From Candidatus Raymondbacteria bacterium RIFOXYA2_FULL_49_16 (lineage in GTDB: Bacteria > Fibrobacterota > OXYB2-FULL-49-7 > XYB2-FULL-49-35), in NCBI GenBank assembly GCA_001789205.1, contig MFYT01000073.1:47452-111451 (forward strand): 64,000 nucleotides of DNA, written 5' to 3'. Positions 542 to 50,200 of this stretch are shown here, piece after piece. The notes under the pieces are model-generated. The model searched no databases. It was not told the origin of the DNA and saw nothing but the letters and a program-made list of their open reading frames with translations. Made by a program: the position numbers and the translations under genes. The number at the start of each line of letters is the position of its first letter. The stretch's first letter is position 1.

Positions 542-1387
542 TTAACCTTTTATATTATCAATCTTACATTTTTTAGAACCAGGAAAGAACTGAACATTCA
601 CAATATATGCCTGGTTGGATTCCTTGTCATCCACCGCAATTTCCATAAGCCGCTGCTTGAATTTCTGTATCTCGCGTTTTACCAGGCCAAACCCCTTGTC
701 CGAAATCCCAATGACCAGGCTTGACACATCCCGCTGGTTGGGCAGGTAGTCTTCAATGGCTTCGCACCCCAGTTCCGCATACTGGCCGTTCATTTTCCGC
801 ACAGCCGGTGAAACAACCTCAGGATCTGTGGTAATAACCGGGTCTCTTTGAATATAGGTGCCGTTTTTTGTGCGCTTGATGAATCCCAGCGAAACAAGCA
901 GCGCCACGCTCTCTTTGGCCTGGGTGGTTGTGATAAAAGGCCTGACACAACTCGCAAGGGCTGTAAAATCGTCTTTCCACTTGCCAGTGCACGCCAATTC
1001 GCGCATAATGGGATTGTACCAGTTGGAGTAATACGCGAAAAGATCTGCTGGAACAATTACCGGTTTTACCCGGGGAATGGCGCCGCGAAGCAATGCCAGA
1101 AATTCGGCCCGCGCCTTGTGGGTTTTTGCCTGGTTGAAGTTGACCAGGGCCGTAAAATATTTCTTTTCAGCGTCGTCCGTGAGGCAAAGGCCCCGTATAA
1201 AGGCCGGAATGGTTGACAAGGAAAGATTGCGTCTGCCATGTATGACCTCAAGGACAAGCGAGTGTGTCTTGAGCCCCGCGATTTTGACAAAGGTCCGGTA
1301 TGAATACAGTGTATTGTTTTTTTTCTCGTTTTCGTAGAAATCACGGATATACTGGCGGTAGTCCATGTAGTGGAAGAGGTGCTTCAT
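542..1387 (-). CDS. TIGR02147 family protein (putative transcriptional regulator)
   Basis: This 281-residue protein begins with the family hallmark region (a Tyr-Arg-Gln-Tyr-Ile-Arg-Asp-Phe-Tyr segment near residue 10, then an HTH-like stretch about residues 25-60 containing TFVKIAGLKTHSLVLEVI) and continues into a DUF4423-like C-terminal half. The family was first defined from paralogues in Fibrobacter succinogenes and is abundant in Fibrobacterota; its members are thought to be regulators, but no member is well characterised to my knowledge. Length fits the family (about 270-290). It is the best single taxonomic pointer in the window. No partner other than the adjacent lipoprotein is obvious. 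Confidence 0.85.
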   Translation of the reverse strand: MKHLFHYMDYRQYIRDFYENEKKNNTLYSYRTFVKIAGLKTHSLVLEVIHGRRNLSLSTIPAFIRGLCLTDDAEKKYFTALVNFNQAKTHKARAEFLALLRGAIPRVKPVIVPADLFAYYSNWYNPIMRELACTGKWKDDFTALASCVRPFITTTQAKESVALLVSLGFIKRTKNGTYIQRDPVITTDPEVVSPAVRKMNGQYAELGCEAIEDYLPNQRDVSSLVIGISDKGFGLVKREIQKFKQRLMEIAVDDKESNQAYIVNVQFFPGSKKCKIDNIKG

Positions 1388-1770: not shown

Positions 1771-3525
1771 CTACAAACCAGGAACCAGGCCTGCGGTTGC
1801 CGCCAGAATAAGCAGAAAGGGCGCGTAAAAGGTGAAGTCGAGTACCAGACTGAACACTGCCCAGCCCGCAAGCTTGTTCTTTATGAACAGGTGATAGACC
1901 AGTAAAAGATACGCAGGGCATACCAGAAGCAGAAGGCTGTTTGCGGGAATGAGGCTGGTGAAAAAGCCTGCGATGGGAACCAATGCGCACAGAACAAGGA
2001 GGGGATAGGGAAAAAGAAGCGATAGTTTTTTACCCAATACAATAGGCAGGGTTTCTCGGCCTACTATGTTGTCGCGCTGAATGTCGTACAAATCGCGGAA
2101 TATGGTCCGGATAAAAACCAAAATGAAAATAAAAAGAAAGGCCACTATCTCGCCGGAAGAAGGCAATGAAGTGAACAGGCTGACGCCCGCATTGGGCAGC
2201 ACTGCGCAGATTACCGCCCATGCCATGGCAATGCCGATGTCTTTTGACAGCGTAATGTCTTTCAGGCGCCTGTTGCGGAGAAAGGGCAGGTTGTTTTTCG
2301 GCAGCAGTTTCATGTGGTACAATATGCCGGCAAAACTGGCCACCAGAAGCAGGATGAATTCGCTCAATCCCGACTGGTAGGCAAGCGCAATGGACAGCAA
2401 ACCCGTGAGCATGCAGAGCAGAATGGAAATTTTACGGTGACGGTAGATATAATCTGTCTTGAATATCTCCTGGTACTGGTTTTCCGTGATATTGGTCAGA
2501 TGGTTCAGAATGTACATTGAATTGATGTAGAGCCAGGCAATGGCCATGTGCAGGTAATTCGCGGACATGCCCTGGATGTACGATGCGGTCCACGCGGCAA
2601 GCGCCGCGCCAAAGGCAAGGTAGATATTGAAACTCACGGCTATTTTTACCGACTCGATGAATATCCTCTGGTACAGGGGTCGCTGATGGTCCGCGATTTC
2701 ACTCAGCCGTTCGTAAACCCGGTTAAGCAGCCATGACGGAGTGGAGGCGCCGGACGCTATGGCCACACTCCTGGTTCCCGTGAAATCAGCAGGATTCAGC
2801 TCCGCCTCGGTCTCGATGTGGAACACATGCGTACATGAGGCGCGCGCAAGGTCGGCAAGCCGTGTTGAATTGGCGCTGTTTTTCCCGCCCACAACCACGA
2901 CCGCGTCAGAGCTTTTTGACAGTGCAACCACCTCGGCTTGGCGCTGGTCAGTGGCGCGGCAGATGGTGTCGAAGATTGCCGCGTCCGCATATTGCGCACG
3001 GATGCGTTCCTTGATCCGTTCGTATTCACTGAGATTCTGTGTTGTCTGTGCGACCAGGCAGACCTTGCCGAGGCCAGGCAGTTTTCCAATCTGGTCCGGC
3101 GTCTGGATCAGGTATCCCTTGCCCTTTGCGCAACCAAGCAGGCCCACCACCTCGGCGTGGCCTTTGTCGCCGAAAATGACAATGGCGTATCCCTTGGCGT
3201 AATACTGTCCGATGATTTTGTGGATACGTTTTACATGGGGGCATGTGGCGTCAACGATGCGCACAGGCCGGGCCTCCATCTGGCCGCGGATGTCCGGAGG
3301 TACGCCATGAGTCCTGATGACAACCGTGGATGCGGTTACTTCGGCCGGTGTTTTCACTGTGGTGACGTTTTTTTTCCGGAGCAGCTCCATGGTCTGGGGA
3401 TTGTGGATAAGGGGGCCCAGGGTCTCAATGGGTTCATCTGATTCGTGCGCGTGTTTGAGAATGGTGTTCATGGCCATACGCACGCCCATGCAGAAACCCG
3501 ATGCCTGCGCAATGGTTATCCTCAT
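1771..3525 (-). CDS. ispH: Fusion of IspH (HMBPP reductase) and UbiA-family prenyltransferase
   Basis: Residues 1-285 are a full IspH, the [4Fe-4S] enzyme that makes IPP and DMAPP in the MEP pathway: Fe-S cysteines at about C12, C95 and C189, a Thr-His-Gly at 72-74, a His-Ala-Glu at 123-125, a Ser-Ala-Asn at 217-219 and the Ala-Ser-Gly-Ala-Ser-Thr-Pro motif near 258. Residues 290-584 form a multi-helix membrane domain. It carries the second UbiA motif, RDLYDIQRDNIVG followed by Arg-Glu-Thr-Leu-Pro (about 477-494). The first UbiA Asp motif (NDxxD) is not evident; the equivalent loop near 341-350 reads NHLTNITEN. Length (584) equals IspH plus one UbiA domain. It is the last gene of an operon with glycerol-1-phosphate dehydrogenase, overlapping the gene before it by 4 nt. 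UbiA could act as a DGGGP-synthase-like or quinone prenyltransferase; the operon favours the former (inference). Confidence 0.9.
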   Translation of the reverse strand: MRITIAQASGFCMGVRMAMNTILKHAHESDEPIETLGPLIHNPQTMELLRKKNVTTVKTPAEVTASTVVIRTHGVPPDIRGQMEARPVRIVDATCPHVKRIHKIIGQYYAKGYAIVIFGDKGHAEVVGLLGCAKGKGYLIQTPDQIGKLPGLGKVCLVAQTTQNLSEYERIKERIRAQYADAAIFDTICRATDQRQAEVVALSKSSDAVVVVGGKNSANSTRLADLARASCTHVFHIETEAELNPADFTGTRSVAIASGASTPSWLLNRVYERLSEIADHQRPLYQRIFIESVKIAVSFNIYLAFGAALAAWTASYIQGMSANYLHMAIAWLYINSMYILNHLTNITENQYQEIFKTDYIYRHRKISILLCMLTGLLSIALAYQSGLSEFILLLVASFAGILYHMKLLPKNNLPFLRNRRLKDITLSKDIGIAMAWAVICAVLPNAGVSLFTSLPSSGEIVAFLFIFILVFIRTIFRDLYDIQRDNIVGRETLPIVLGKKLSLLFPYPLLVLCALVPIAGFFTSLIPANSLLLLVCPAYLLLVYHLFIKNKLAGWAVFSLVLDFTFYAPFLLILAATAGLVPGL

Positions 3526-5372
3526 GGCAGCAGTCCCTTCAATTCGGAAATAATGACTTTCAGAATAGCCGGGTTGTATCCCGCGATCTTAAAGGTATTA
3601 TTCACCAGGAATGAAACGGTAGGCTCTGTATTAAACACGGAATCTGAAAGGGCGACGGCCGCGGAAAAGAGCGTCTCTCCCTCCTTGCTGTGGGAACAGG
3701 CCCTGATTCTTACGGTATCGATATCGAGCTGGTGCGCGCACGCGTGCCATTCATCCGCGGGTTCTGGCGTCCTGGTTTCAAACCGCTGCTGCACATCAAA
3801 TCCGCGGCACAGTGCGTAGTCATAGGCTTTTCGCTTGGGATAGAGGGCAAAGACACACAACTGACGGCTGCTTTCGCGGATTTCACCCGGTCCATTGAGA
3901 CTCTGGAAAGCGTTGGTCCATTCTCCTTCCCGGGTTTTTTTTTGCGCGCGGTACGCATAGGGATGCAAGACTACGAGTGTCGCGGGAAGAGAATCAAAGA
4001 TTACGGTTTCGAATGAACGCAGCATTTCAACAAAAGGAGGATCCTGGAAAGAACCCATGATCTCGAGGCGGCCGGGCATGCGTATTCTGCTGAGCAAGTG
4101 GTATGATTTCACGACACTCTGGTTGATGCGGAGCTTGTTGCCAGCGGGGGTAAACGTAGCGCTGATTTCCGCGAACCGGGGATCGGCCGTTACAGCGCTA
4201 TCAAACAGAAAGGCCGGATATGCGGCAAGACCGTAGTGCGCAATGGTCTCTTTGCCGCGGGTGGCGTTGATATCGATAAAATCGAAACGCGCCTCGGGAA
4301 AACGGCGCCGTATTTCCATAATAATGTTCCCGGTATGGCAAGTGGGGCACGATTCGTCGTTGACCACGGTCACGGTAAAGGAGCGGGCTTTGGTAAAGAC
4401 GCACCGCGCCTTTTTTGTCATGGGATCGCGGCACACGCCGCTTTTACCCGCTTGCCTGCAGTCAGTGTCGTATCCGCACTCGGGGAACGCTACGCACGGC
4501 CCTGTCCGGGGTGCGTTGTCGCAGAAGAAGCGCTCCACCGGATAGGCGGTTATCGCTCCTTCGTATTCCACGCCATTGATGAAAAGCGTGGGTGAGCCGT
4601 TTACCTTGCGTTTTTTCGCCTCGCGTATGTTCAGGGTAAACAGGGAATCGCCTTTGCGCGAATCGACATATGCGGCAATGGCGGATATCGCCGGGGCGGA
4701 AAAACCCGCGGTGCGCGCGGCTTTTCTCCAGTCAGAGTCAATGTCCTGGTTCCTTTTCCGCAGATAATCGAGCAGCTTGTCAGGATAGAAGGCGGCTATC
4801 ACGGTTTGCCGCATGTCTTCGAGCACTTCATTGAGCCCGTGCAGGCTCACAAAGCGATCCGTGCCCTCCATGTTGCCCGAGGCCTGGCATTTGCTATCAA
4901 CTGAGGCGCCTTCGGGCAGGGGTTGGCCGGGTTCTTCAGCCTCTTGCTCGCCATCGCGCGCATGGGCGATGAAATAGAGGTTGAAGACGATGTTTTTTTT
5001 CCACGCACGCAGGAGGGGCAGCAGTTCATTGACCGCGGCAATGCCATAAGGACAGTAGCTCATGATAAAGAGGTCGAGGGTGACAATGCCGTTTTTCTTG
5101 CGTACAGGCGCATTCTTTGGTCCATGGCTGAAAAGGGCGTCGGATATCCGGGTGATATTCGCGGGAGTTGGCGCAAGCACGTGGCGCACGCCATTACCAT
5201 GACACGTTTCGCACGATTGGTGTGCGGGGTTGTTGCTCCATTCGGCATAGATGTCCTCGTGGCAGCGCTGGCATTGACCGCTGCCCGCCTGCACAGGCTT
5301 TTCCTGCACTGCGTTTCCCATACACCAGAAAAAAAGGACAAGTGCGGCAAGGGGAGCGGGGGCCATGCTCAT
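3522..5372 (-). CDS. Secreted protein with CxxCH motifs and thioredoxin-fold domains
   Basis: A 616-residue protein with an N-terminal signal or anchor segment (about 5-22). CxxCH haem-type motifs stand at about 34-38 (CQRCH) and 54-58 (CETCH), a third at 343-347 (CPTCH, more likely a thioredoxin-type active site). Residues about 95-290 look like a DsbA/GILT-type thioredoxin fold: a beta strand ending in MSYCPYG, with only one Cys at the active site (C107), and a cis-Pro loop GSPTLFING near 260-268. A Cys-rich linker (285-325) leads to a second thioredoxin-like domain (330-430). The last 180 residues are unassigned. It overlaps both neighbours by 4 nt (ATGA), so it is co-translated with glycerol-1-phosphate dehydrogenase and IspH-UbiA. 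A periplasmic redox role is inferred; I know no characterised protein with this layout. Confidence 0.7.
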   Translation of the reverse strand: MSMAPAPLAALVLFFWCMGNAVQEKPVQAGSGQCQRCHEDIYAEWSNNPAHQSCETCHGNGVRHVLAPTPANITRISDALFSHGPKNAPVRKKNGIVTLDLFIMSYCPYGIAAVNELLPLLRAWKKNIVFNLYFIAHARDGEQEAEEPGQPLPEGASVDSKCQASGNMEGTDRFVSLHGLNEVLEDMRQTVIAAFYPDKLLDYLRKRNQDIDSDWRKAARTAGFSAPAISAIAAYVDSRKGDSLFTLNIREAKKRKVNGSPTLFINGVEYEGAITAYPVERFFCDNAPRTGPCVAFPECGYDTDCRQAGKSGVCRDPMTKKARCVFTKARSFTVTVVNDESCPTCHTGNIIMEIRRRFPEARFDFIDINATRGKETIAHYGLAAYPAFLFDSAVTADPRFAEISATFTPAGNKLRINQSVVKSYHLLSRIRMPGRLEIMGSFQDPPFVEMLRSFETVIFDSLPATLVVLHPYAYRAQKKTREGEWTNAFQSLNGPGEIRESSRQLCVFALYPKRKAYDYALCRGFDVQQRFETRTPEPADEWHACAHQLDIDTVRIRACSHSKEGETLFSAAVALSDSVFNTEPTVSFLVNNTFKIAGYNPAILKVIISELKGLLP

Positions 5373-6406
5373 GGGAAAACCGCGTGGTAGGCTTTTTCAA
5401 TGGTTTTGACATCAGTCTCATCAAGAATCGAGTAGCGGCCGCGCCGCATTTCAGGCGCTTTGCGTACCGAGCACAGGAATTCCTTGCGCGAAAGCCCCAG
5501 GGCTGCGGGTGTCGCGGCCATGGAAAACCGGGTGAACATTCTGCGGACAGCGTCGGTTTTTATATGGTGAAGGTGCAAGGTAAAAAGCGTCGCAACCCCC
5601 ACCTGCTCACCGTGGCTTGAGCCTCTGTGATAGAGCAGGTCAATGGCATGGCTGATCATATGTTCGGCGCCCGAGCTGGGCCTGCTGCTGCCAGTAATGC
5701 CCATGGCAATGCCACTCATGATAAGGCCCTCAATGAGGGTCTTCAGGAGTGCGGATCCATTGAGCGCCGCAGAGCGGTGCTCAATGAGCTGAATGGCCGC
5801 GTTACGGGAAATTGTTTCGGCAAAATCGTCGATGCGGTCCTTGCCTTTGTGCCAGGCAAGACGCCAGTCCGCGCAAGCGGAGAGGTTGGAGACCAGATCG
5901 CCCATGCCGCTCCTAATGGTGCGTACCGGTGATTTTTGTATGACATCGAGGTCCGCGATGACGGCCATGGGCATGTGGGCGTTGAGGCTGCGCGTACGGC
6001 CCTTGCATTTGATCACCGCGATGGGTGAGGAGATGCCATCATTTGATACGGCCGTGGGTATGCTGATGAATCCAACCGCTTTTTCCGACGCGGCGTATTT
6101 TGCCACGTCAATGGCCACTCCTCCTCCCACGCCAATGACCGCGTCAGGCGCGCCGCGGTCGATCGCCTTTTGGACCACGGCGGTTTCAGCCAGGGTACTG
6201 TCGCGTACAATGAGGATGTCGCTGGGACATCCGATTTCCCGCGCCACGGAGCGGGCAATGGAATGGAGCGGTTCGTCGCCGGTGACAATGAGGCATTTCT
6301 TGAGAAAGACGTTGCGTTCTGACAAAAGCGGCCTGATGCGGGTGAGCGCGCCGTGATCCACGCACATGAACACGGGGAGCGGGACGTCTCTGCGGAGGAT
6401 GGCCAT
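5369..6406 (-). CDS. egsA: sn-glycerol-1-phosphate dehydrogenase
   Basis: The 345-residue protein belongs to the iron-containing alcohol dehydrogenase superfamily, G1PDH (EgsA/AraM) branch, which reduces DHAP to sn-glycerol-1-phosphate, the archaeal-type lipid backbone. Visible: the nucleotide-binding loop GVGGGVAIDVAK (92-103), the substrate loop SIPTAVSNDGISSP (115-128), and metal ligands Asp170 (GMGDLVSN), His249 (GAEHMISHAID) and His265 (SSHGEQVG). The length fits. It is the first gene of a three-gene overlapping operon with the CxxCH protein and IspH-UbiA. The ATG directly abuts the T-tract of the terminator of the upstream SWIB gene and has no Shine-Dalgarno sequence, so initiation is unusual or the mRNA is leaderless. 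Bacterial AraM enzymes also exist, so archaeal origin is not proven. Confidence 0.88.
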   Translation of the reverse strand: MAILRRDVPLPVFMCVDHGALTRIRPLLSERNVFLKKCLIVTGDEPLHSIARSVAREIGCPSDILIVRDSTLAETAVVQKAIDRGAPDAVIGVGGGVAIDVAKYAASEKAVGFISIPTAVSNDGISSPIAVIKCKGRTRSLNAHMPMAVIADLDVIQKSPVRTIRSGMGDLVSNLSACADWRLAWHKGKDRIDDFAETISRNAAIQLIEHRSAALNGSALLKTLIEGLIMSGIAMGITGSSRPSSGAEHMISHAIDLLYHRGSSHGEQVGVATLFTLHLHHIKTDAVRRMFTRFSMAATPAALGLSRKEFLCSVRKAPEMRRGRYSILDETDVKTIEKAYHAVFP

Positions 6407-6442
6407 AAAAAAGAATGCCCCGCTGCAGTGAACAGCGGGGCA
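6407..6442 (-). terminator. Intrinsic terminator of the SWIB gene
   Basis: On the minus strand a perfect 10-bp stem (TGCCCCGCTG / CAGCGGGGCA, 7-nt loop) is followed by a TTC and then six T residues. It lies 25 nt after the SWIB stop codon. The T-tract ends one base before the egsA start codon. Confidence 0.85.
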
Positions 6443-6467
6443 CCAAATACGGTTTTATCCGTTTCCG

Positions 6468-6737
6468 TTATTTTTTCAGGTTCTTGTTGACCAGTTTGGT
6501 CATCTCGAACATGTTGACGGATTTCTTGCCGCCGAACACTGCCTTGAGGGCTTCGTCAGCGTTGATCATACGTCTGTTTTTGGCGTCCTGCAGTTTGTTC
6601 TTCTTGATGTAGACCCACAGCTTTTTGGTGAGTTCGGTGCGGGGAAGGGGCTTGCTGCCGACGACTTCAGCGAGCTTTTCATTGGGCTGGACCGGAGCCA
6701 TGAACTTCGCGTTGGGTTTGCGCTTTTTCGCTGCCAT
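6468..6737 (-). CDS. SWIB/MDM2-domain protein
   Basis: The 89-residue protein is a stand-alone SWIB domain: a basic Lys/Arg-rich N-terminus, then the core LPRTELTKKLWVYIKKNKLQD, the AspAlaLysAsnArgArgMetIleAsn strand, and a C-terminal helix VNMFEMTKLVNKNLKK. SWIB domains are typical of eukaryotic chromatin remodellers, and small bacterial versions occur in chlamydiae, planctomycetes and some FCB bacteria, where a nucleoid or DNA-related role is suspected. The start has a good ribosome site (GGAGGAAAG before ATG). It is a monocistronic unit closed by a strong terminator at 6407-6442. Confidence 0.85.
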   Translation of the reverse strand: MAAKKRKPNAKFMAPVQPNEKLAEVVGSKPLPRTELTKKLWVYIKKNKLQDAKNRRMINADEALKAVFGGKKSVNMFEMTKLVNKNLKK

Positions 6738-6849
6738 AACACTTTCCTCCTGGATAGGTTTGTTTTTTGTTAAGAAACCCTCTATGGAATTTCTTCTTTT
6801 TCACTGGTAATATCACATTTCTGACAGGAAGAAAGCAATACAAATTTTT

Positions 6850-7200
6850 TCAGGCCGTTTCAGCCTGGAAGGCGTCCCGTTTGTATTCATTGCGGTGCAG
6901 GGGGCAGAATTTCGGGTAAATGTACTGCTTGGGGAATATTTTTACCTTATATTTGTTCTGGCAATTTTCCAACTGGCAGGTGAGTTCAAGCTCGGTGACC
7001 TCGGTGAAACCGTGCTTGAAAACGAAGTTCTTGACGTCCACGGCCTCGTACTGTTTGATCTTACGCGTCCGATTGGCTATGTTGCGGTGAAATTCGCAGT
7101 ATTTTGCGATGGGGTGGCCGATGAATTCTTTGCCGCACCCCGGTTCCTGGCATACCTTGTGCTTGAGGCGTTTCTTTTTCTTATAGCGTGGTAGTTGCAT
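6850..7200 (-). CDS. Small zinc-binding protein with two C-x4-C / C-x2-H modules
   Basis: I start it at the ATG 7200-7198, preceded by AGGAGA at good spacing; an upstream in-frame extension to 7323 is rich in Arg and overlaps the neighbouring small gene, so it is rejected. The 116-residue product is basic, with a run PRYKKKKRLKHK at the start, and carries two similar modules: CQEPGCGKEF...YCEFH and CQLENCQNKY...FCPLH. Each gives four potential zinc ligands. That pattern suggests a nucleic-acid-binding or structural zinc protein. I do not recognise a named family. It follows the 56-residue acidic Cys protein by 23 nt and probably shares its transcript. Confidence 0.65.
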   Translation of the reverse strand: MQLPRYKKKKRLKHKVCQEPGCGKEFIGHPIAKYCEFHRNIANRTRKIKQYEAVDVKNFVFKHGFTEVTELELTCQLENCQNKYKVKIFPKQYIYPKFCPLHRNEYKRDAFQAETA

Positions 7201-7223
7201 GTGATGGTCTCCTGTATGGTTCT

Positions 7224-7394
7224 TTAGACGATAGTGAGGTCGTTTTCGTCGTAGCTCTCGTCGCTTTCCATGTCGTCGTAGGAATCGTACAGGATCATCT
7301 GGCAACCATCGAAATCGGGGCAATCGACACAGTTAAAGTCGTCGGCGCCCTCTATTTCGCACAGTTTTTGGGAAACCCGTGCCTGTCCTTCCAT
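7224..7394 (-). CDS. 56-residue acidic, Cys-containing small protein
   Basis: This ORF begins at ATG 7394-7392 after a GAAAGGAAG ribosome site and ends with TAA at 7226-7224. The product is strongly acidic in its second half (many Asp/Glu between residues 34 and 52) and has four Cys: one near residue 12 and a cluster NCVDCPDFDGC (about 21-31), so it may bind zinc. The basic zinc protein downstream and this acidic one could interact by charge (inference). Upstream, the HTH-receiver protein ends 21 nt away on the same strand, suggesting one transcript of three genes. No family recognised. Confidence 0.6.
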   Translation of the reverse strand: MEGQARVSQKLCEIEGADDFNCVDCPDFDGCQMILYDSYDDMESDESYDENDLTIV

Positions 7395-7415
7395 TGTCTT
7401 CCTTTCATCCTCCCG

Positions 7416-7997
7416 CTAATTTTCTGAGGGATGCAGCAGGGTGAATATCTTCTGCTTGAGCTCAACGATTGAAAAGGGTTTTACAAGGTATTCGTCCGCG
7501 CCTAGCGTGAACATTTTTCTGATTTTACGGGTGTCACAGATGGCCGAGATGACCATGATCTTGGTGCTTGCCGTTTCAGCTGATTTTTTAATAAAGTTGC
7601 AGATTTTGTACCCATCGAAATCGGGCAGCATGATGTCGAGGAGGACCAGATCAGGCTTGAAGTCGATGGCGATGCCCGCGGCAAAACCCGAATAGGACTT
7701 TTTTATATCGTAGTTTTCCTTTTCCAGGATGCTCGAATAGAGGTTCATGGCGTCGATATCGTCCTCGACAATGAGGATTTTGCGGGAAGCGCTCTGGCTG
7801 ACGCAGGTTTCGAGCTTGTTTTCCTTGATAAACTTAAGCAGGTCTTCCTTCAAAATCCGGCGATGGCCGCCGGGGGTCCGGTAGCCATTGAGCTTGCCGT
7901 TGTTCATCCAGTAGATGACGGTATTGGTAAATACGTTGAGGGCTTTGGCGACCTCATGCGTCGTAAATACGGATTTATTCAGTTCCAGTTTTTTCAT
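7416..7997 (-). CDS. HTH (MerR/excisionase type) plus response-regulator receiver protein
   Basis: Residues 9-60 are a MerR/BldC-like winged helix: FTTHEVAKALNVFTNTVIYW, then NGYRTPGGHRRI and a helix. Residues 73-190 are a CheY-like receiver with acidic pocket Asp79/Asp80, phosphorylation site Asp121 (LLDIMLPD), Ser151 and Lys173 (KPF). The order DNA-binding domain first, receiver last is the reverse of most response regulators. No histidine kinase is adjacent, so it is an orphan regulator. It heads a probable minus-strand unit with the two small Cys proteins. The start has a Met-Lys-Lys-Leu N-terminus; an AT-rich TATATATTC box lies about 35 nt upstream. Confidence 0.85.
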   Translation of the reverse strand: MKKLELNKSVFTTHEVAKALNVFTNTVIYWMNNGKLNGYRTPGGHRRILKEDLLKFIKENKLETCVSQSASRKILIVEDDIDAMNLYSSILEKENYDIKKSYSGFAAGIAIDFKPDLVLLDIMLPDFDGYKICNFIKKSAETASTKIMVISAICDTRKIRKMFTLGADEYLVKPFSIVELKQKIFTLLHPSEN

Positions 7998-8131
7998 ACC
8001 CGATTTTGTAGGAATTGTAGTTTTTCTGGGAATATATACATTAATTTCATGGTGTTTGTCAATACCTTTTATCCTCTTTCTTCTCGGGCCGGTTATTTGC
8101 TATTTTTTTGAGCATACAGAAGGAGCATTCC

Positions 8132-8350
8132 ATGAAAGAACAGGTTCTGGCGGCAATCAAGAAGATACGCCCCGCGCTCATGGCTGACGGCGGCGATATA
8201 GAGCTGGTGGGTATTGAGGGGGGGGTGGTGAAGGTACGGCTTACGGGCGCGTGCCACGGATGCCCCCACGCCGCAATCACGCTTAAAGAGGGCGTGGAAC
8301 GGATCATTAAAAGCGAAGTACCTGAAGTGCAGAGCGTTGAATCGGTGTAG
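8132..8350 (+). CDS. NifU C-terminal (NFU) domain Fe-S scaffold protein
   Basis: Starting at ATG 8132, preceded by AGAAGGAG, the product has 72 residues and is a stand-alone NFU domain: KKIRPALMADGGDIELV, then VKVRLTGACHGCPHA with the Cys pair C41/C44 that holds an Fe-S cluster between two subunits, and a final VERIIKSEVPEV helix. NFU proteins pass [4Fe-4S] clusters to apo-enzymes. IspH, QueE and the ferredoxin in this window are the kind of client it could serve (inference). Transcribed divergently from the HTH-receiver gene. Confidence 0.9.
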   Translation: MKEQVLAAIKKIRPALMADGGDIELVGIEGGVVKVRLTGACHGCPHAAITLKEGVERIIKSEVPEVQSVESV

Positions 8351-8368
8351 CGAGCGGGCAACGAATGG

Positions 8369-9598
8369 CTATGCCACCCGCACCCGGTGGTAGGTCTTTT
8401 TACCTTTTCTCAGGACAATTATGCCTTGGCTGTCGGCAAGGTCTTTTGTCGCGGCCAGAATGGGTGATGTAATTACGCTGTCGTTTATCGATAATCCACC
8501 CTGTTCAATCAGTTTCCTGCCTTCGGATTTTGACAAAATAAGTCCTGACGCGAGAAAAAGGTCGAGGACGGTCATTTTTTCAGTCAGAGCCACATCTGTT
8601 GTGGGTATTGCGGCTGCGTTGGCCTGGCCGCCCTGTTCAAAAAGCGCGGCGCTTGCATCGCGCGCCTGGACCGCGGCCTTTTCGCCGTGGACAATTTTTG
8701 TCGCCTCAAAGGCCAGGGTCTTTTTCACCTCGTTTATGGCGGACTCCTTTTCAGCATTGAGCAGGACGATAGTCTCGTCAGTAATGAAGGTGAAGAAATT
8801 GATGAATTTCATCACATCAGCGTCGTGCGTATTACGCCAGTACTGGTAATATTCAAAAGGCGATGTGCGTTCAGCGTCGAGCCATACCGCGCCTTTTTCG
8901 GTTTTCCCCATCTTTTTTCCCGACGAGGTCTCGATGAGCTGCGCGGTGATTCCATACGTCTCTTTCTTTTCTTCCCTGCGGACAAGATCGATGCCCGCGA
9001 GGATATTGGACCATTGGTCGTCCCCGCCAATCTGGAAGGTGCAGTTGCGTGTTCGGTTGAGGTGCAGGAAATCGTAGGCCTGCAGGAGCATGTAGTTGAA
9101 TTCGAGGAACGAGAGCCCTTTCTGGAGCCGCTGCTTGAAACACTCGGCAGTGAGCATGCGATTGACTGAAAAGTGCCTGCCCACGGAACGGAGAAAGTCA
9201 ACATAGTTGAGGGGACGGATCCATTCGGCGTTGTTGACCATGATCGCCTTGTTTGCGCCCGTGAAATCGAGAAACCGTTCCAGTTGTTTCTTGATGCCAG
9301 CGGCGTTCGTGTCAATGGCTTCGATTGGCAGCATTTGGCGCATGTCGTCCTTGCCCGTGGGGTCGCCCACCATTGCCGTGCCGCCGCCGACAAGGATGAT
9401 GGGGGTGTGGCCTGCCCGCTGCATATGCGACATGACCATGACGGGGAGCAGATGACCCGCGTGCAGACTGTTGGCCGTGGGGTCGAAGCCCGCGTAGAAG
9501 ACGATTTTTTCGTCCCTGAGAATACGCTTGATCTCGTCCTCGTGGGTGAGCTGGGCTATGTAGCCGCGTGCATGCAGGGTTTCGAATGCGGTTTTCAT
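8369..9598 (-). CDS. tyrS: Tyrosyl-tRNA synthetase
   Basis: The 409-residue protein is a complete class I TyrRS. The HIGH motif is HAGH (46-49), the tyrosine and tRNA-site motif GGDDQWSN is at 191-198, and the KMSKS loop is KKMGKT (228-233). The C-terminal S4 RNA-binding domain is seen in LSKSEGRKLIEQGGLSIND (from about 350). Start is the ATG at 9598, only about 10 nt after a consensus-like -10 box, so the mRNA may be leaderless or nearly so. It converges with the NFU gene. Confidence 0.97.
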   Translation of the reverse strand: MKTAFETLHARGYIAQLTHEDEIKRILRDEKIVFYAGFDPTANSLHAGHLLPVMVMSHMQRAGHTPIILVGGGTAMVGDPTGKDDMRQMLPIEAIDTNAAGIKKQLERFLDFTGANKAIMVNNAEWIRPLNYVDFLRSVGRHFSVNRMLTAECFKQRLQKGLSFLEFNYMLLQAYDFLHLNRTRNCTFQIGGDDQWSNILAGIDLVRREEKKETYGITAQLIETSSGKKMGKTEKGAVWLDAERTSPFEYYQYWRNTHDADVMKFINFFTFITDETIVLLNAEKESAINEVKKTLAFEATKIVHGEKAAVQARDASAALFEQGGQANAAAIPTTDVALTEKMTVLDLFLASGLILSKSEGRKLIEQGGLSINDSVITSPILAATKDLADSQGIIVLRKGKKTYHRVRVA

Positions 9599-9608
9599 AG
9601 GGAATCAA

Positions 9609-9636
9609 GATACAACACTTAAAAGGGCAATGTCAA
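9609..9636 (-). promoter_or_regulatory. Sigma-70-type promoter of tyrS
   Basis: On the minus strand TTGACA (9636-9631) and TGTATC (9614-9609) are separated by 16 nt. The -10 box ends about 10 nt before the tyrS ATG, implying a very short leader. Confidence 0.6.
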
Positions 9637-9652
9637 TGCGTTGCTGTAATTT

Positions 9653-10837
9653 TCATTTGAACAGCTTGATCGCTTCGAGGATGAGCGCGGGCTGGTTTTT
9701 CACCGTGAGTTTCAGCAGGTCGATATATTTGAGTTTCGACGGGTCTTTGTTGATAAGTACCTCGGCCGCGGCCTCGATTGTGCTGTCGTTTACCTTGAGC
9801 ACCGCGCGCTTGAGCAGATACGAGCGTTCCTGCTGTTTGCCCACGCCGTTTTTCCAGCGCTTCTCGAACACGGACAAACGTTTTTCCGATACATCGCCTT
9901 CTGACAATGCCTCACAGGCGATGGAGGCGGCGAGCTTTGCTGAATTCATGGCAAAGGTAATGCCTCCGCCGTCGAGACAGTTGGCCATGCGCGCGGCATC
10001 GCCCACGACCATGAACCCGCCTGCCACTAATTTTTTGAGATAGAGGCCCAGGGGTACTGAGCCCACGGTGAGCGCGAGCGGTTTGGCCTTGGGAAAGCGG
10101 AGCGTCATGAAGCGGTTGAGTATCTGGACGGGCGATTCCTTCCCCGCAGCTTTTGCCGTGATGCCCAGGCCCAGGTTGGCTGTGCCGTCGCCCTTGGGAA
10201 ACATCCAGGCATAGCAGTCGGGAACGATGTTTTTGCCAAAATGGAGTTCGGGAAACCCCTCGGGCGATTCAACGTTCGTGACCCGGTATTGCGCGCAGAT
10301 GCCGATATCGTTCAGGTCGGTGATGGTGGAATTGAGACCCGCCAATTTGGCCATGCGCGATTCAATACCATCAGCGGCAATGACAATGCGGCACCCCACA
10401 TCGATCGCCATGTCGTGATGGAGCACCTTGACCCCGCAAATGGCGTCCTTTTTCCTGAGAAGCCCCACTGCCACGGTGCCGACACGTATGTCAGCGTTGT
10501 ATTTCGCCGCCATCTGGACAATGGATTTCTCCATCACAGGACGGTTGAGCATGTACGCCGGCTCCGGACAGGGCACGTTTACGCGCACCCCCTTGGGAGA
10601 TACAAAGGTAACACCGTTGACCGTATGGGTTATCCAGGAGGGATCCGGATTGATGGCAAGGGTAAGCCCGCGCTTTCCCACAAGCTCGCCGCATCGGACT
10701 GGAAGGCCGATCTCCCGGTCCTTTTCGAGCAGGAGCGTGGAAAAGCCGTTTTCGGCGAAAGTTTTTGCGGCAATGGCGCCTGCAGGCCCCGCGCCCACAA
10801 CAATGGCGTCGTAAAATTGTTCAAGGGGCAGTTTCAT
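9653..10837 (-). CDS. Geranylgeranyl reductase family flavoprotein
   Basis: From ATG 10837 the product has 394 residues. It shows the FAD-binding VVGAGPAGAIAAKTFAE motif (13-29), a Cys in VRCGE (C49) typical of archaeal geranylgeranyl reductases, the family motif YAWMFPKGDG (209-218), and a second FAD motif GDAARMANCLDGGGI (279-293). Family members saturate geranylgeranyl chains of archaeal lipids, or of chlorophyll and quinones. The ATG overlaps the TGA of the upstream ferredoxin gene, so the reductase and its likely electron donor are co-translated. In methanogens such as Methanosarcina the reductase of lipids also works with an adjacent ferredoxin. With egsA and IspH-UbiA 3 kb away, a role in reducing ether-lipid chains is plausible; menaquinone side-chain reduction is the main alternative. 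Confidence 0.85.
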   Translation of the reverse strand: MKLPLEQFYDAIVVGAGPAGAIAAKTFAENGFSTLLLEKDREIGLPVRCGELVGKRGLTLAINPDPSWITHTVNGVTFVSPKGVRVNVPCPEPAYMLNRPVMEKSIVQMAAKYNADIRVGTVAVGLLRKKDAICGVKVLHHDMAIDVGCRIVIAADGIESRMAKLAGLNSTITDLNDIGICAQYRVTNVESPEGFPELHFGKNIVPDCYAWMFPKGDGTANLGLGITAKAAGKESPVQILNRFMTLRFPKAKPLALTVGSVPLGLYLKKLVAGGFMVVGDAARMANCLDGGGITFAMNSAKLAASIACEALSEGDVSEKRLSVFEKRWKNGVGKQQERSYLLKRAVLKVNDSTIEAAAEVLINKDPSKLKYIDLLKLTVKNQPALILEAIKLFK

Positions 10838-11025
10838 GCGTCCTCGAGGGTGAGTGCCCGGAAAGGGCAGATAATGACGCAGCGGCCGCACGCGGTGCAC
10901 TGGTCCTGCTCAATTTGCATGGACGTTTCGAGAAGGATAAGCGCGTCGGTTTTGCACACGGCAACGCATGAACCGCAGAAATCGCACTTTTGGATATCGA
11001 AAGTGATGGTTTTCTTTTTCTTCAT
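10834..11025 (-). CDS. 2[4Fe-4S] ferredoxin, partner of the reductase
   Basis: The 63-residue protein carries two clostridial-type cluster motifs, CDFCGSCVAVCKTDA (about 14-28) and CTACGRCVIICPFRA (about 44-58). The spacing and compact size are those of bacterial low-potential ferredoxins. Its TGA overlaps the ATG of the geranylgeranyl-reductase gene, so it is probably the dedicated electron donor. The divergent lptF promoter lies upstream. Several Lys residues precede the first cluster. Confidence 0.92.
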   Translation of the reverse strand: MKKKKTITFDIQKCDFCGSCVAVCKTDALILLETSMQIEQDQCTACGRCVIICPFRALTLEDA

Positions 11026-46699: not shown

Positions 46700-49600
46700 A
46701 TGACGCGTGTTGCCATACTCATATTTCTGACGGTTCTTCCGCTGCCTTCGTTGGCAGCCTGGGGAAAGAGCGCGCCTCCCTCCGAGGAACTCAAATGGTT
46801 TGAGCTCAAGGGACTCCAGGGCCGTCTCGAGCAGGAATATGACAGGCTTGAAATCGTGGAACGCGAGGTTGACCGCCTCAGGAGCACGGTTGAGGACATT
46901 GGCGCGCTCCGACTCTATCCGGCTTCGTGCACAAACCTCTCCAAGGAGCGCATCCTTTCCCTCGACAAGTCGCTCAAGGAATACCGCAGGCAGGTCACCC
47001 GCTTCAACGATGCGGTGGCAGCGCTTACCAGCGAATTGGGCGACGCCATCGGCATTTTCAAGGAGCTGGTCTACGAAGACCAGGAGCGTACCATGCTCCA
47101 GACTCTTGATGCCGAGAGCAAGGAGCGGGTCAAACGGGTGATTTTGCTCAAGCGGGAGATCAACAACTTGTGGAAAACCTTTAACGTGACGCTCGACAGC
47201 CTTTCCATTGCGGCCGGCATGGCCCTGCCGGAGCGGCAGCGGCAGCAAGAGGGCGATTTTGATTCCGAGTTCTTCGAGGTCCTTTATTCGAACCTGGGCA
47301 TGTCGTCCGACCTCTTTTTCAAGCGGCTCTCGGCGTATAAGGACCATATGCTTTCACGGGCTGATTCAAACGCCATGGCCTTTATGGCGACCGTTGACCT
47401 GAAAAACGCGCGGATCAAGTTCGACCAAGGCAATTTCATTGCCGTGCGGCGCGAGCTCTCCACACTGGTCATCCGTTTCGAAGGCAAGATCAAGCTGTCA
47501 GGCATCTATTTTTACCTGGGCCAGGCGACCCAGGCCCTTGGCAAGTACGCGGACGCGCTATTGGCCTACGCGCAGGTGCGCCCCACCAGCCAGTATTATG
47601 CCAAGGCGCTTCTGAACATTCTCCAGTGCCATCTTGCCCTGCAAAACCACCTTCAAGTCATCTCACTGTTCGAAAAAGAGCAGGAAGTGATCGATAAAAT
47701 CGGCACTCCCAACGAGGCCCTATTTGTCGCCTGCCAAGCCTATTACGCGCTCAAAAATGAGAAGGCGATTGTCGAGGTCTCGGCGCGCGCGCGGAAAAAC
47801 ACCCCACTTTACGAGGGTATTCTCTATGTGCTGGGCCAGTCATACCTTGCGCGGGGAGACCGGGAGACCGCGCAGACCATTTTCGAAAAAATCATTGAGA
47901 TCGCCAGGTCGTACAAGGCGGACCGCCTTTTTGTCGATCGTGCGGCAATGGCCCTGGCGCATCTCGATTTTGAGGCGGGCAACTACCGCCAGGCGCTCAA
48001 ACAATATCTGGTGTTGCTCGACCGCGAGAAGCTCTTTGCCGAAGCGCTTGAAGGCATTGCCTGGTGTTATCTCTACCTGGGTAACTATGAAAAGGCAGAG
48101 ATCGCGCTAAAGAAACTGGTGAATCAGGCGCCGCAGAGCCCCTCGGGTTGCGATGCCCTGCTCACACTCGCCAAGAGCTATCTGAAACAGGCCACCCTGG
48201 AATGGGAAAACCGGAAGGACCTCAAGGCCGACGCTGACCATATCGGCAGGCTGCGGCGTCTCCTCGATAAGCGGCGCGCGTCCGGCGAGGTTGATTCCGC
48301 CAGATACGCGGTCGCCTGCCAGCGGCTGGACCAGATAGAGGTGGAGAGCAAAAAACGCGACGTTTTATCATACGATGACATTAATGCGCTTTATGTCAGG
48401 GCGAACGACATCGGCGCCATGCTGGTACGCAGTTACCGCACTGGTGAATTCATCAAGAGCGCCTCGCAAAACCAGCAGCAGGAGCTTCTGATAAAGTTGC
48501 GCGACCTTTACCTGCGCGTTACAGCGGCCAAAACAGGCATGCTGCAGAAGGATGTCTTCAGGGAGCGCGAGGAACAGTCGCGCGCCCGCGAAACCATCGC
48601 CGCCACTGTTGTCCAGACGCGGCTTTTCCTGGTAAAGACCTTTCTTGAGCGCAGGGAATGGGAAAACGAATACCTCCAGTTTTACATAGGCGAGACCGAC
48701 TCCCGCATCGCCGCCATGCAACGCGACAGCACGCTTTCCGATTCCGCGCGCATCAGCGGGATTGAAAACCTCGTGCGGAGAAAAACCGCCGCTATTGCCG
48801 GCCGCGCGGCTCTCGACGCGTCAGACCGTACGGCCATGATCACTGAGCTGACCGCACTCTCCGGCGAAAACCTGACGGACAAGGAGGAGCAGTTCGTACT
48901 CTACTACCTGGGAGAGCTTTCGTACCAGGCCGCTGACGAAAGTTATGGCAAAAAAGTGACCACCTACGAACAGGCCATGTCCGATTTTAGGAATGGAACG
49001 GTGGCGGAACGGCCCGCGGCGCCGGTCATGGACTATAGCATGGTAAAAGCGTATCTCACAAAACTGATTGAAAAATACCCGGGGTCAGAATTCGGCGACG
49101 GCGCTCTATACTCGCTCACCTTCTGCCACCGGTGGGAGGACAGTACGGCAACGGCCATCTGGTACGCTGAACAACTCGTGAAAAAATATCCGCAGAGCCA
49201 GTACGCGCCCCAGACGTATATGATTATCGGCGAGTATTATTTCGACGAGAACAAGCTGGAAATGGCACTTGCCGCCTATCAGAAAGTGCTCCAGTTCCCC
49301 GAGAGTAAATGGTTTGACAAGGCGCTATATAAGATAGGGTGGGCCTATTACCGGCTCTCAAACTTCGAGAAGACCATCAGCTCATTGTTTTATATAGTCA
49401 ACGAACAGGACGAACTTGCCGAGGGCGGTCTCAACCTCGACGTTTTTGCCAAGAGCCTGCTCACCAAGGAGTCCATCGATTATATCGCCATCAGTTTCGC
49501 CGAGGGCGATACCACGGGCGAGGAGATGGCCGGGCTCAAGCGCGCCCGGCGCTTCGTCGACAAAATCAACAACGAATATATCGGCTCCAAGATCCTGCAT

Positions 49601-50200
49601 AAACTGGGGGACGTCTATCGCGAGCAGCTCAAATATGAGAACGCCATTGCCACCTACAAGGCGCTCCGCGACAAGTATTCCAATTACCGTGAAATGCCGC
49701 GGGTCATGTACAACATAATTGAATGCTACGAACAGCGGGGCGGCGAGAAGGACTTCCAGGCCGCTCTGACGGGCAGGCAGCAGCTGTTCAAGAAATACAA
49801 CCACACCGCCGAATGGAACAAGGCCGTAGGCGATAGCGTCGCTGCTGTGCTGGGCGATAGTTTGGCGGAACAGGCGCTCATTGAGGCGTCGAGTTCGCTG
49901 TATTCGCGGGCGCTTGAAAAGAACAGCAAGGACTTGTATCGTCAGGTGATCGATATGTACTGGGACTATATCAAGACCTATCCGTACAGGGAAAAGGCGG
50001 GGGAGTATCATTACTATATTGCCGAAATCCTTTTTGGCACGGGTGATTATTCTGAGGCCGCGAACCAATATATCACGGTTTCGCGCACCTACCGCGCTTC
50101 CAAGTATTGCGAGACCGCGGCGTGGAACGCGATTGTGGCCGCGCGCCGGCTGCTTGAGGTAGAGGAAAAAGAGGCAAACGGAGGAAACAAGAGCCAGTGA
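46700..50200 (+). CDS. Giant periplasmic TPR protein
   Basis: The 1166-residue protein has a signal peptide (VAILIFLTVLPLPSLAAWG), an N-terminal coiled-coil region (about 30-180) and then many TPR-like repeats, recognisable by patterns such as GKYADALLAYAQVRP, GNYRQALKQYLVLLDREKLF, NYEKAEIALKKLVNQAP, DENKLEMALAAYQKVLQFPESKW and GDYSEAANQYITVSRTYRAS. Such proteins act as scaffolds. It overlaps the next gene, a TPR lipoprotein, by 4 nt. In the Agl-Glt comparison it would stand in the place of the periplasmic TPR scaffold proteins; orthology is not shown. Confidence 0.8.
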   Translation: MTRVAILIFLTVLPLPSLAAWGKSAPPSEELKWFELKGLQGRLEQEYDRLEIVEREVDRLRSTVEDIGALRLYPASCTNLSKERILSLDKSLKEYRRQVTRFNDAVAALTSELGDAIGIFKELVYEDQERTMLQTLDAESKERVKRVILLKREINNLWKTFNVTLDSLSIAAGMALPERQRQQEGDFDSEFFEVLYSNLGMSSDLFFKRLSAYKDHMLSRADSNAMAFMATVDLKNARIKFDQGNFIAVRRELSTLVIRFEGKIKLSGIYFYLGQATQALGKYADALLAYAQVRPTSQYYAKALLNILQCHLALQNHLQVISLFEKEQEVIDKIGTPNEALFVACQAYYALKNEKAIVEVSARARKNTPLYEGILYVLGQSYLARGDRETAQTIFEKIIEIARSYKADRLFVDRAAMALAHLDFEAGNYRQALKQYLVLLDREKLFAEALEGIAWCYLYLGNYEKAEIALKKLVNQAPQSPSGCDALLTLAKSYLKQATLEWENRKDLKADADHIGRLRRLLDKRRASGEVDSARYAVACQRLDQIEVESKKRDVLSYDDINALYVRANDIGAMLVRSYRTGEFIKSASQNQQQELLIKLRDLYLRVTAAKTGMLQKDVFREREEQSRARETIAATVVQTRLFLVKTFLERREWENEYLQFYIGETDSRIAAMQRDSTLSDSARISGIENLVRRKTAAIAGRAALDASDRTAMITELTALSGENLTDKEEQFVLYYLGELSYQAADESYGKKVTTYEQAMSDFRNGTVAERPAAPVMDYSMVKAYLTKLIEKYPGSEFGDGALYSLTFCHRWEDSTATAIWYAEQLVKKYPQSQYAPQTYMIIGEYYFDENKLEMALAAYQKVLQFPESKWFDKALYKIGWAYYRLSNFEKTISSLFYIVNEQDELAEGGLNLDVFAKSLLTKESIDYIAISFAEGDTTGEEMAGLKRARRFVDKINNEYIGSKILHKLGDVYREQLKYENAIATYKALRDKYSNYREMPRVMYNIIECYEQRGGEKDFQAALTGRQQLFKKYNHTAEWNKAVGDSVAAVLGDSLAEQALIEASSSLYSRALEKNSKDLYRQVIDMYWDYIKTYPYREKAGEYHYYIAEILFGTGDYSEAANQYITVSRTYRASKYCETAAWNAIVAARRLLEVEEKEANGGNKSQ

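What the first reader, a model, noticed from the sequence alone, without database searches (positions are those of the whole stretch)
1771..11025. Candidate archaeal-type ether-lipid pathway in a bacterium
Within 9.3 kb lie a glycerol-1-phosphate dehydrogenase (archaeal backbone stereochemistry), an IspH fused to a UbiA prenyltransferase (the family of DGGGP synthase), and a geranylgeranyl-reductase-like flavoprotein with an overlapping ferredoxin. These match three of the steps that give saturated archaeal ether lipids, plus isoprenoid supply. Some FCB-group genomes are known to encode such enzymes, so the idea is not wholly new, but this operon layout with IspH-UbiA and a redox protein looks undescribed. 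GGGP synthase is missing from the window.
Basis: partly seen in the sequence, partly recalled or inferred. Interest (0 to 1): 0.85.

Follow-up and report, generated by a model that had tools for sequence, protein, structure and literature searches.

The report
Archaeal-type lipid genes in a bacterium
This bacterium carries, beside its ordinary bacterial lipid genes, relatives of all four core enzymes that archaea use to build their ether lipids, so it would likely make a mixed membrane; the fused protein first taken for the second-tail enzyme belongs to a different branch, and the likely real one sits elsewhere in its genome.

Summary
The genes are real. The window (very likely a Fibrobacterota genome) holds a glycerol-1-phosphate dehydrogenase (G1PDH) in a tight three-gene operon with a CxxCH/DsbA-like protein and an IspH-UbiA fusion. 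A separate ferredoxin-geranylgeranyl reductase (Fd-GGR) pair lies 3.2 kb away. The missing step is not missing: the same genome has a GGGP synthase beside alaS. The IspH-UbiA fusion forms its own clade, lacks the full first Asp-rich motif (0 of 122 fusions), and is a published fusion type. GpsA, PlsY and a CdsA-family protein are present, so a mixed membrane is likely. In 167 genomes of the phylum, 144 show both GGGPS and DGGGPS matches, but only 15 a convincing G1PDH, in two separate clades. The idea is not new: Coleman 2019 reported Fibrobacteres genera with all three core genes. New here: the G1PDH operon (equal contig lengths in ten relatives support it), the second G1PDH clade, and the Fd-GGR pair in 28 of the 30 best GGR loci. 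No lipids were measured.

The parts
1771..3525 (-). IspH-UbiA fusion, 584 aa (IspH about residues 1-280; UbiA about 285-584, window 1774-2673). Only IspH found in this genome. UbiA half lacks the first Asp-rich motif (NHLTNITEN) but keeps the second.
   Evidence: Pfam LYTB 4.4e-86 and UbiA 4.9e-12; one match in own genome; alignment, motif count and tree; model resembles IspH 3dnf and UbiA 4tq4/6m31
3522..5372 (-). 616-aa protein with an N-terminal hydrophobic stretch, two N-terminal CxxCH motifs, a DsbA-like region and a second thioredoxin-like region with a third CxxCH (CPTCH); overlaps its neighbours by ATGA
   Evidence: Pfam DSBA 1e-6; conserved Cys in 14 aligned sequences; CxxCH positions; model closest to GILT/DsbA
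5369..6406 (-). Glycerol-1-phosphate dehydrogenase (EgsA/AraM type), 345 aa
   Evidence: NCBIfam PRK00843 279 bits (cut-off 413) against 64 for glycerol dehydrogenase; aligned metal-ligand positions D/H/H as in PDB G1PDH 4rgq; own clade of 18
6404..6444 (-). 13-pair GC-rich hairpin with T-rich tail directly abutting the G1PDH ATG (terminator or attenuator-like)
   Evidence: folding z-score -5.77
9653..10837 (-). Geranylgeranyl reductase-family flavoprotein, 394 aa
   Evidence: TIGR02032 209.7 bits over cut-off 158.8; best by E-value DGGPL_Thplmales 223.9 bits, under its cut-off of 780
10834..11025 (-). 63-aa 2[4Fe-4S] ferredoxin, ATGA overlap with GGR
   Evidence: Pfam Fer4; sequence; ferredoxin ORF beside GGR in 28 of the 30 best GGR loci of the phylum, own included

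Best explanation
The genome encodes homologues of the four core enzymes of the archaeal ether-lipid pathway next to a bacterial G3P/acyl pathway, and would likely make G1P-based isoprenoid ether lipids as a minority or mixed membrane. Inferred route: G1PDH (window) makes G1P from DHAP. GGGPS (contig C28) adds the first C20 chain, and the UbiA protein on C68 adds the second. The ferredoxin-fed GGR (window) would then saturate the chains. No CarS was found; the CDP-diacylglycerol synthase homologue would have to activate the product, as reported for the bacterial enzyme. The G1PDH operon would supply precursors. Its IspH half is the only IspH found in this genome and would make the C5 units, while G1PDH makes the backbone, so both halves of the lipid would be co-expressed. 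The fused UbiA domain most likely anchors IspH to the membrane or does an unknown prenyl transfer, and is not the DGGGP synthase. Shown by sequence: presence, family, gene order, motifs. Inferred: activities, substrates, lipids.
For: GGGPS on C28: PcrB 4.7e-42, TIGR01769 205.4 over cut-off 161.55, 4jej 8.4e-48 against 3.8e-7 for the best heptaprenyl enzyme. UbiA on C68: DGGGPS model PRK12882 180.7 bits; DGGGPS 6m31 9.5e-36 as best PDB chain; groups with it in the tree (83/88). G1PDH. Ferredoxin ORF beside GGR in 28 of 30 loci, the arrangement that Methanosarcina acetivorans GGR needs in E. coli (passage in PMC4244643). Bacterial side: GpsA 425.1 over 423 and PlsY 183.2 over 137.2, CdsA-family PF01148. 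Polyprenyl synthase beside dxs (800.3 over 465.95). Operon: two ATGA overlaps. Of 12 Dsb-protein homologues at 38-49% identity, 10 lie on contigs of the same length as a G1PDH homologue's, and 2 of these also match a fusion. Bacterial neighbours (alaS, TrkH family, tyrS, LptF/G family) and 0.63% contamination argue against an archaeal stray contig.
Against: No lipid data. CarS (PF01864) not found. G1PDH and DGGGPS stay under NCBIfam equivalog cut-offs (279 of 413; 180.7 of 296), and the top model of the C68 protein is a plain 'prenyltransferase' (PRK12884, 184.6). The window G1PDH's best PDB chain, 3ce9, is deposited as a glycerol dehydrogenase (4.7e-52), ahead of the G1PDH 4rgq (1.8e-44). DGGGPS grouping support is only moderate (83/88) with long branches. 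No GGPP synthase passes a cut-off: one polyprenyl synthase passes the farnesyl model (336.9 over 275), the other passes none listed. GGR could saturate menaquinone or another prenyl chain; a second GGR-like gene exists. The fusion occurs in many bacteria without G1PDH nearby (0 of 80 loci), so its job does not depend on G1P. Sharing of contigs in relatives is inferred from equal contig lengths, not read directly.
Confidence: 0.68

Rival explanations
1. One reading: the IspH-UbiA fusion itself is the DGGGP synthase and the pathway is one locus.
For: Best NCBIfam hit of the UbiA half is a DGGGPS model, but at only 32 bits. It sits in the G1PDH operon. The model's UbiA half resembles 6m31 among other UbiA folds. 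Some fusions outside this phylum keep parts of the first motif (D at +8 in 59 of 78, both DxxxD in L151 and P0015).
Against: Own clade, 100/99. Full NDxxDxxxD in 0 of 122 aligned fusions and in 23 of 24 DGGGPS-group rows; the motif alone does not decide, since two other UbiA genes of this genome (C20, C61) also miss that pattern. A far better DGGGPS candidate is in the same genome. No G1PDH or GGR match in the 80 fusion loci held from other genomes.
Confidence: 0.06
2. G1PDH and GGGPS make a minor single-chain prenyl-glycerol lipid (as in Bacillus), not diether membrane lipids.
For: Bacillus AraM/PcrB precedent (recalled; AraM also in the passages of PMC13400652). No CarS.
Against: GGGPS matches C20-type enzymes, not heptaprenyl ones. 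DGGGPS candidate and Fd-GGR are present. GGGPS and DGGGPS matches co-occur in 144 of 167 genomes.
Confidence: 0.15
3. G1P from the G1PDH is used by PlsY/PlsC to make mirror-image fatty-acid phospholipids, and the operon has nothing to do with isoprenoid ethers.
For: PlsY present. PlsY and PlsC accept both glycerol-phosphate forms (passages of PMC13400652).
Against: All 15 genomes with a convincing G1PDH also have a GGGPS match and 14 of 15 a DGGGPS match, though both are near-universal here. Operon with IspH points to isoprenoids.
Confidence: 0.08
4. The operon is a redox or quinone module: the Dsb-like protein and IspH-UbiA act together, and G1PDH is a passenger or has another alcohol substrate.
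For: Relatives of the Dsb-like protein and full fusions have nearly the same family distribution in the phylum (34 and 32 of 167). The fusion's function is unknown. Best PDB chain of the G1PDH is deposited as glycerol dehydrogenase.
Against: For 10 of 12 close relatives the Dsb protein shares a contig length with a G1PDH. Wider relatives of the Dsb protein have another N-terminal half and no CxxCH (29 of 29). PRK00843 leads glycerol dehydrogenase by more than 200 bits.
Confidence: 0.12

Closest known systems
Archaeal-type ether-lipid genes of FCB bacteria (Villanueva et al. 2020, Ca. Cloacimonetes, PMC7852524; abstract, passages and sections 23 and 25 read)
   Same: GGGPS + DGGGPS + GGR beside a full bacterial lipid pathway; no CarS; MEP supply
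   Different: Those Cloacimonetes MAGs lack egsA/araM and have GGGPS and DGGGPS side by side; here a G1PDH is present and GGGPS and DGGGPS are on different contigs
Fibrobacteres with all three core genes (Coleman et al. 2019, PMC6431249; passages read)
   Same: G1PDH, GGGPS and DGGGPS in one genome of the same phylum (Chitinispirillum, Chitinivibrio)
   Different: Window G1PDH is in a different clade from the 14 other convincing Fibrobacterota G1PDHs found here; operon and Fd-GGR pair not mentioned in the passages I read
IspH-UbiA 'Rosetta stone' fusion, PT_UbiA_5 (Rao et al. 2015, PMC4746011; passages read)
   Same: Same domain order; function of the UbiA part unknown
   Different: Reported from sulfate-reducing anaerobes; here in Fibrobacterota, in an operon with G1PDH. 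That paper mentions two DXXXD repeats; here the first is lost in the window protein and in 29 of 29 other Fibrobacterota fusions, and kept whole in only 2 of the 122 aligned
Methanosarcina acetivorans ferredoxin-GGR pair (Isobe et al. 2014, as cited in PMC4244643; passage read)
   Same: Ferredoxin gene directly upstream of GGR
   Different: Bacterial; ATGA-overlapping in the window; electron donation not tested

Membership tests
Archaeal-type ether-lipid pathway | G1PDH homologue | tested here: met
   PRK00843 279 bits (under its cut-off of 413), Asp/His/His conserved; best PDB chain labelled glycerol dehydrogenase
Archaeal-type ether-lipid pathway | GGGP synthase in the genome | tested here: met
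   over TIGR01769 cut-off; 4jej
Archaeal-type ether-lipid pathway | DGGGP synthase homologue in the genome | tested here: met
   C68 UbiA: 6m31 9.5e-36, motif NDIQDTAIDAVN, groups with 6m31 at 83/88; below NCBIfam cut-off
Archaeal-type ether-lipid pathway | Geranylgeranyl reductase homologue | tested here: met
   TIGR02032 over cut-off; ferredoxin partner
Archaeal-type ether-lipid pathway | CDP-archaeol synthase CarS | tested here: not met
   PF01864: 0 of 1; only CdsA-family PF01148. It is also missing in the published FCB case
Archaeal-type ether-lipid pathway | Dedicated GGPP (C20) synthase | tested here: inconclusive
   two polyprenyl synthases; one passes the farnesyl-PP subfamily cut-off, neither passes a GGPP one
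Archaeal-type ether-lipid pathway | Isoprenoid ether lipids in the cell | not testable with these tools
   needs lipid extraction and LC-MS
DGGGP synthase (applied to the fusion's UbiA half) | NDxxDxxxD first motif and place in the DGGGPS clade | tested here: not met
   full motif in 0 of 122 fusions; own clade 100/99
IspH-UbiA fusion (PT_UbiA_5 type) | IspH N-terminal, UbiA C-terminal, homologous to the sulfate-reducer fusions | tested here: met
   78 of the 80 kept loci found from its UbiA profile are full fusions, by record title mostly Desulfobacterales and other deltaproteobacteria
IspH | Three Fe-S cysteines and IspH fold | tested here: met
   C12, C95 and C189 in the sequence (ligand identity recalled); C95 and C189 invariant in A4, C12 not listed as invariant, some rows starting later; model matches 3dnf

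The most novel reading that the evidence does not exclude
Fibrobacterota is a phylum of mixed-membrane bacteria: its GGGPS-DGGGPS core is ancestral and near-universal, probably including the rumen genus Fibrobacter. G1P supply was added at least twice. In this lineage it was wired into a translationally coupled operon in which membrane-anchored IspH-UbiA channels C5 units, and G1PDH channels the backbone, into archaeal lipid synthesis.
Probability: 0.25. Interest if true: 0.78.

Novelty: new variant of a known kind. Interest (0 to 1): 0.52.

Why it matters
Whether any living bacterium makes a mixed G1P-isoprenoid/G3P-acyl membrane bears directly on the 'lipid divide' and on what the last common ancestor's membrane could have been. 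Many FCB bacteria with GGGPS and DGGGPS lack a known G1P source. A genome with G1PDH tied in one operon to isoprenoid supply removes that objection for this lineage and gives a clear order of enzymes to assay. The phylum-wide GGGPS/DGGGPS pattern reaches what are probably cultured Fibrobacter relatives, where lipids could be checked at once.

Tried and rejected
Considered and rejected: one nine-kilobase operon (a + strand nifU-type gene and tyrS lie between the two units); the fusion as DGGGPS (see rivals); an archaeal contaminant contig (neighbours are alaS, tyrS and LptF/G- and TrkH-family genes; contamination 0.63%). The three weaker G1PDH hits in families f7 and f8 were set aside: they fall far out in the tree (branch 3.12), leaving 15 of 167. 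The tree used 81 of the 139 rows aligned (I dropped part of the lower-ranked database proteins by rank), and those were themselves from the best 120 listed of 962. P0051, labelled f1_operon by rank before the tree was built, fell outside that clade, which has 18 rows.

Led nowhere: sigma-70 promoter scan (7 found, 6.6 expected); neighbours within 1.5 kb of the 17 other G1PDH loci showed none of the ten pathway queries apart from G1PDH itself; genome-contig scan with the fusion's UbiA gave no locus with G1PDH, the Dsb protein or GGR nearby (0 of 80; 231 relatives were found, 80 kept); Pfam on three longer Dsb-protein relatives (no family); paper searches for Fibrobacter lipids showed no report of isoprenoid ethers in the listings.
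Full report
What is there. In the 64-kb window, five genes matter, all on the - strand. G1PDH (5369-6406), a 616-aa Dsb-like protein (3522-5372) and an IspH-UbiA fusion (1771-3525) overlap each other by ATGA. About 3.2 kb upstream, a 63-aa ferredoxin and a geranylgeranyl reductase (GGR) overlap in the same way (10834-11025 and 9653-10837). tyrS, a + strand nifU-type gene, an HTH-receiver gene, a small ORF and a SWIB gene lie between, so there are two units, not one operon. A 13-pair hairpin with a T-rich tail abuts the G1PDH start codon. It folds better than all 200 shuffles (z -5.77); terminator-like sites in the region number 18 against 12.7 expected. That start (M.IL.R) is shared by 12 of the 19 relatives P0035-P0053, but the database's own gene call for this protein (P0034, 332 aa) starts 13 residues later, so the start is not certain.

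Which organism. The nearest named homologues are Fibrobacterota/Fibrobacteres MAGs (P0024, P0028, P0039), and the window carries a TIGR02147 'Fsuc_second' protein at 260 bits over a cut-off of 50. I read it as Fibrobacterota. The genome has 5.43 Mb in 112 contigs, 100% complete, 0.63% contamination. Organism names of PDB chains below are recalled, not from a call.

The missing step is elsewhere. GGGPS: contig C28:11987-12664, 4.7e-42, directly after alaS. It passes TIGR01769 (205.4 over 161.55) and is nearest to 4jej and 5nf1/4mm1 (8.4e-48 and 1.2e-46), not to heptaprenyl enzymes (3.8e-7 at best). DGGGPS: the genome has five UbiA-family genes. The one on C68 scores 180.7 bits to the DGGGPS model PRK12882 (under its cut-off of 296) and 184.6 to PRK12884 'prenyltransferase'. 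Its best PDB chain is the DGGGP synthase 6m31 (M. jannaschii, 9.5e-36), and it carries NDIQDTAIDAVN. The others look like a MenA-type enzyme (C20; best model 103.4 bits, below its cut-off), a decaprenyl-phosphate phosphoribosyltransferase (C107, above cut-off), an unassigned UbiA (C61) and the fusion.

The fusion is not DGGGPS. Its UbiA half reaches only 32 bits to any DGGGPS model. In a 43-row tree the 15 fusion rows form one clade (100/99), while the 24 DGGGPS-group rows, including C68 and 6m31, group at 83/88 (the program warned of long branches). The full NDxxDxxxD pattern is in 23 of 24 DGGGPS-group rows and in 0 of 122 fusions aligned. Both middle Asp are lost in the window protein and in 29 of 29 other Fibrobacterota fusions; elsewhere the last Asp is often kept (59 of 78 from named genomes) and two fusions keep DxxxD (L151, P0015). 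The pattern is also missing in this genome's C20 and C61 genes, so it is not decisive alone. The second motif is kept in the Fibrobacterota alignment. The fusion is published: Rao et al. 2015 listed 47 from sulfate reducers, function unknown (passages). A scan of named genomes found 231 relatives and kept the best 80, by title mostly Desulfobacterales and other deltaproteobacteria, with some Nitrospinota, Nitrospirota, Deferribacteres, a Zixibacteria and one 'Fibrobacter sp.'; 78 of 80 are full fusions, and none has a G1PDH, Dsb-protein or GGR match in the DNA held. It is the only IspH found in this genome. Its model has an IspH and a UbiA fold (pLDDT 84.8).

G1PDH. PRK00843 leads glycerol dehydrogenase by 279 to 64 bits but is under its cut-off of 413. 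The best PDB chain is 3ce9, deposited as glycerol dehydrogenase (4.7e-52), then G1PDH 4rgq (1.8e-44). The positions aligned with three metal-ligand residues of 4rgq (identity of the ligands recalled) are Asp, His, His; across the 139-row alignment they are D in 137 (E in 2), H in 139 and H in 139. In an 81-row tree the window protein sits in a clade of 18 (100/99), apart from the 14 G1PDHs of families f3 and f4, which group with 3ce9 (99/99). Only two PDB references, as fragments, were in that tree, one of them archaeal, so it does not say where either clade came from.

Operon conservation. Equal contig lengths link 10 of 12 Dsb-protein homologues (38-49% identity) to a G1PDH homologue; the other two lie on contigs of 2,411 and 3,885 bases. 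Two of the ten also match a fusion; the other five near fusions (P0002, P0003, P0005, P0006, P0008) match neither by length. This is inference from lengths. The contigs could not be fetched.

Phylum survey (167 genomes each). GGGPS: 156 match, 155 over cut-off. DGGGPS: 151. Both: 144, by the listed misses, counting two weak GGGPS matches at about 1e-4 (G048, G050). G1PDH: 18, of which three are distant in the tree, leaving 15. Fusion reaching residue 500 or beyond: 32, my count of the listed rows. Dsb-protein relatives: 34. GGR: 153 at 1e-20. alaS lies within the locus of GGGPS in 22 of 30 loci, and a ferredoxin ORF beside GGR in 28 of the 30 best loci, own included. I scanned four DGGGPS-type proteins and two GGGPS from other families: for all four the top model is PRK12884 'prenyltransferase' with DGGGPS models next (below cut-offs), and both GGGPS pass TIGR01769.

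Bacterial side. GpsA (425.1 over 423) and PlsY (183.2 over 137.2) are adjacent on C8. A CdsA-family protein is on C26 (PRK11624 89.7 bits, under its cut-off). dxs stands beside a polyprenyl synthase that passes the farnesyl-PP model (336.9 over 275), not a GGPP one; the second polyprenyl synthase passes none listed. CarS was not found.

The 616-aa protein. Two N-terminal CxxCH motifs, a DsbA/GILT-like domain and a second thioredoxin-like region with CPTCH are invariant or nearly so in 14 aligned sequences. The model is good outside the N-terminus (pLDDT 78.7, with 1-93 mostly below 50), and its best matches are GILT and DsbA. Wider relatives have open frames of 334-832 aa and no CxxCH in the 29 examined; the one scanned has an UshA-like N-terminal half (129.7 bits, under its cut-off of 275), and three gave no Pfam family. 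I have no firm role for it; a periplasmic thiol-redox protein is likely.

What is known. Coleman et al. 2019 reported Chitinispirillum and Chitinivibrio (Fibrobacteres) with G1PDH, GGGPS and DGGGPS (passage). Villanueva et al. 2020 showed activity of Cloacimonetes GGGPS in vitro and of GGGPS with DGGGPS in E. coli, without a G1PDH gene in those MAGs, and cite a bacterial CDP-diacylglycerol synthase standing in for CarS (passages and sections). So the kind is known. The operon with G1PDH, the second G1PDH clade and the Fd-GGR pair did not appear in my paper searches, which cover open-licence papers only and did not ask for operons.

Noticed in passing
window 6404-6444 (-): Strong hairpin plus T-rich tail whose tail runs straight into the likely G1PDH ATG; if that start is right there is little room for a promoter or usual ribosome-binding site. 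It may end the SWIB transcript or control G1PDH.
   Followed up: partly
L120-L148 (genome-search loci): Wider relatives of the 616-aa Dsb-like protein carry a different N-terminal half (UshA-like in the one scanned) and no CxxCH; their family distribution nearly matches that of the IspH-UbiA fusion (34 and 32 of 167 genomes).
   Followed up: partly
G043, G045-G056: Thirteen genomes of one family (genera g26, g28) have no GGR match at 1e-20 although all have GGGPS and DGGGPS matches (two of the GGGPS weak); their chains might stay unsaturated.
   Followed up: no
window 6468-6737 (-): Small stand-alone SWIB-domain protein in a bacterium.
   Followed up: no
window 542-1387 (-): TIGR02147 'Fsuc_second' paralogue family protein, which fits Fibrobacterota.
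   Followed up: yes
window 46700-53172 (+): Two adjacent large proteins (1166 and 991 aa) with YbgF/BamD-like repeat matches.
   Followed up: no
own genome C61 (L007): A further UbiA-family protein without a clear NCBIfam assignment.
   Followed up: no
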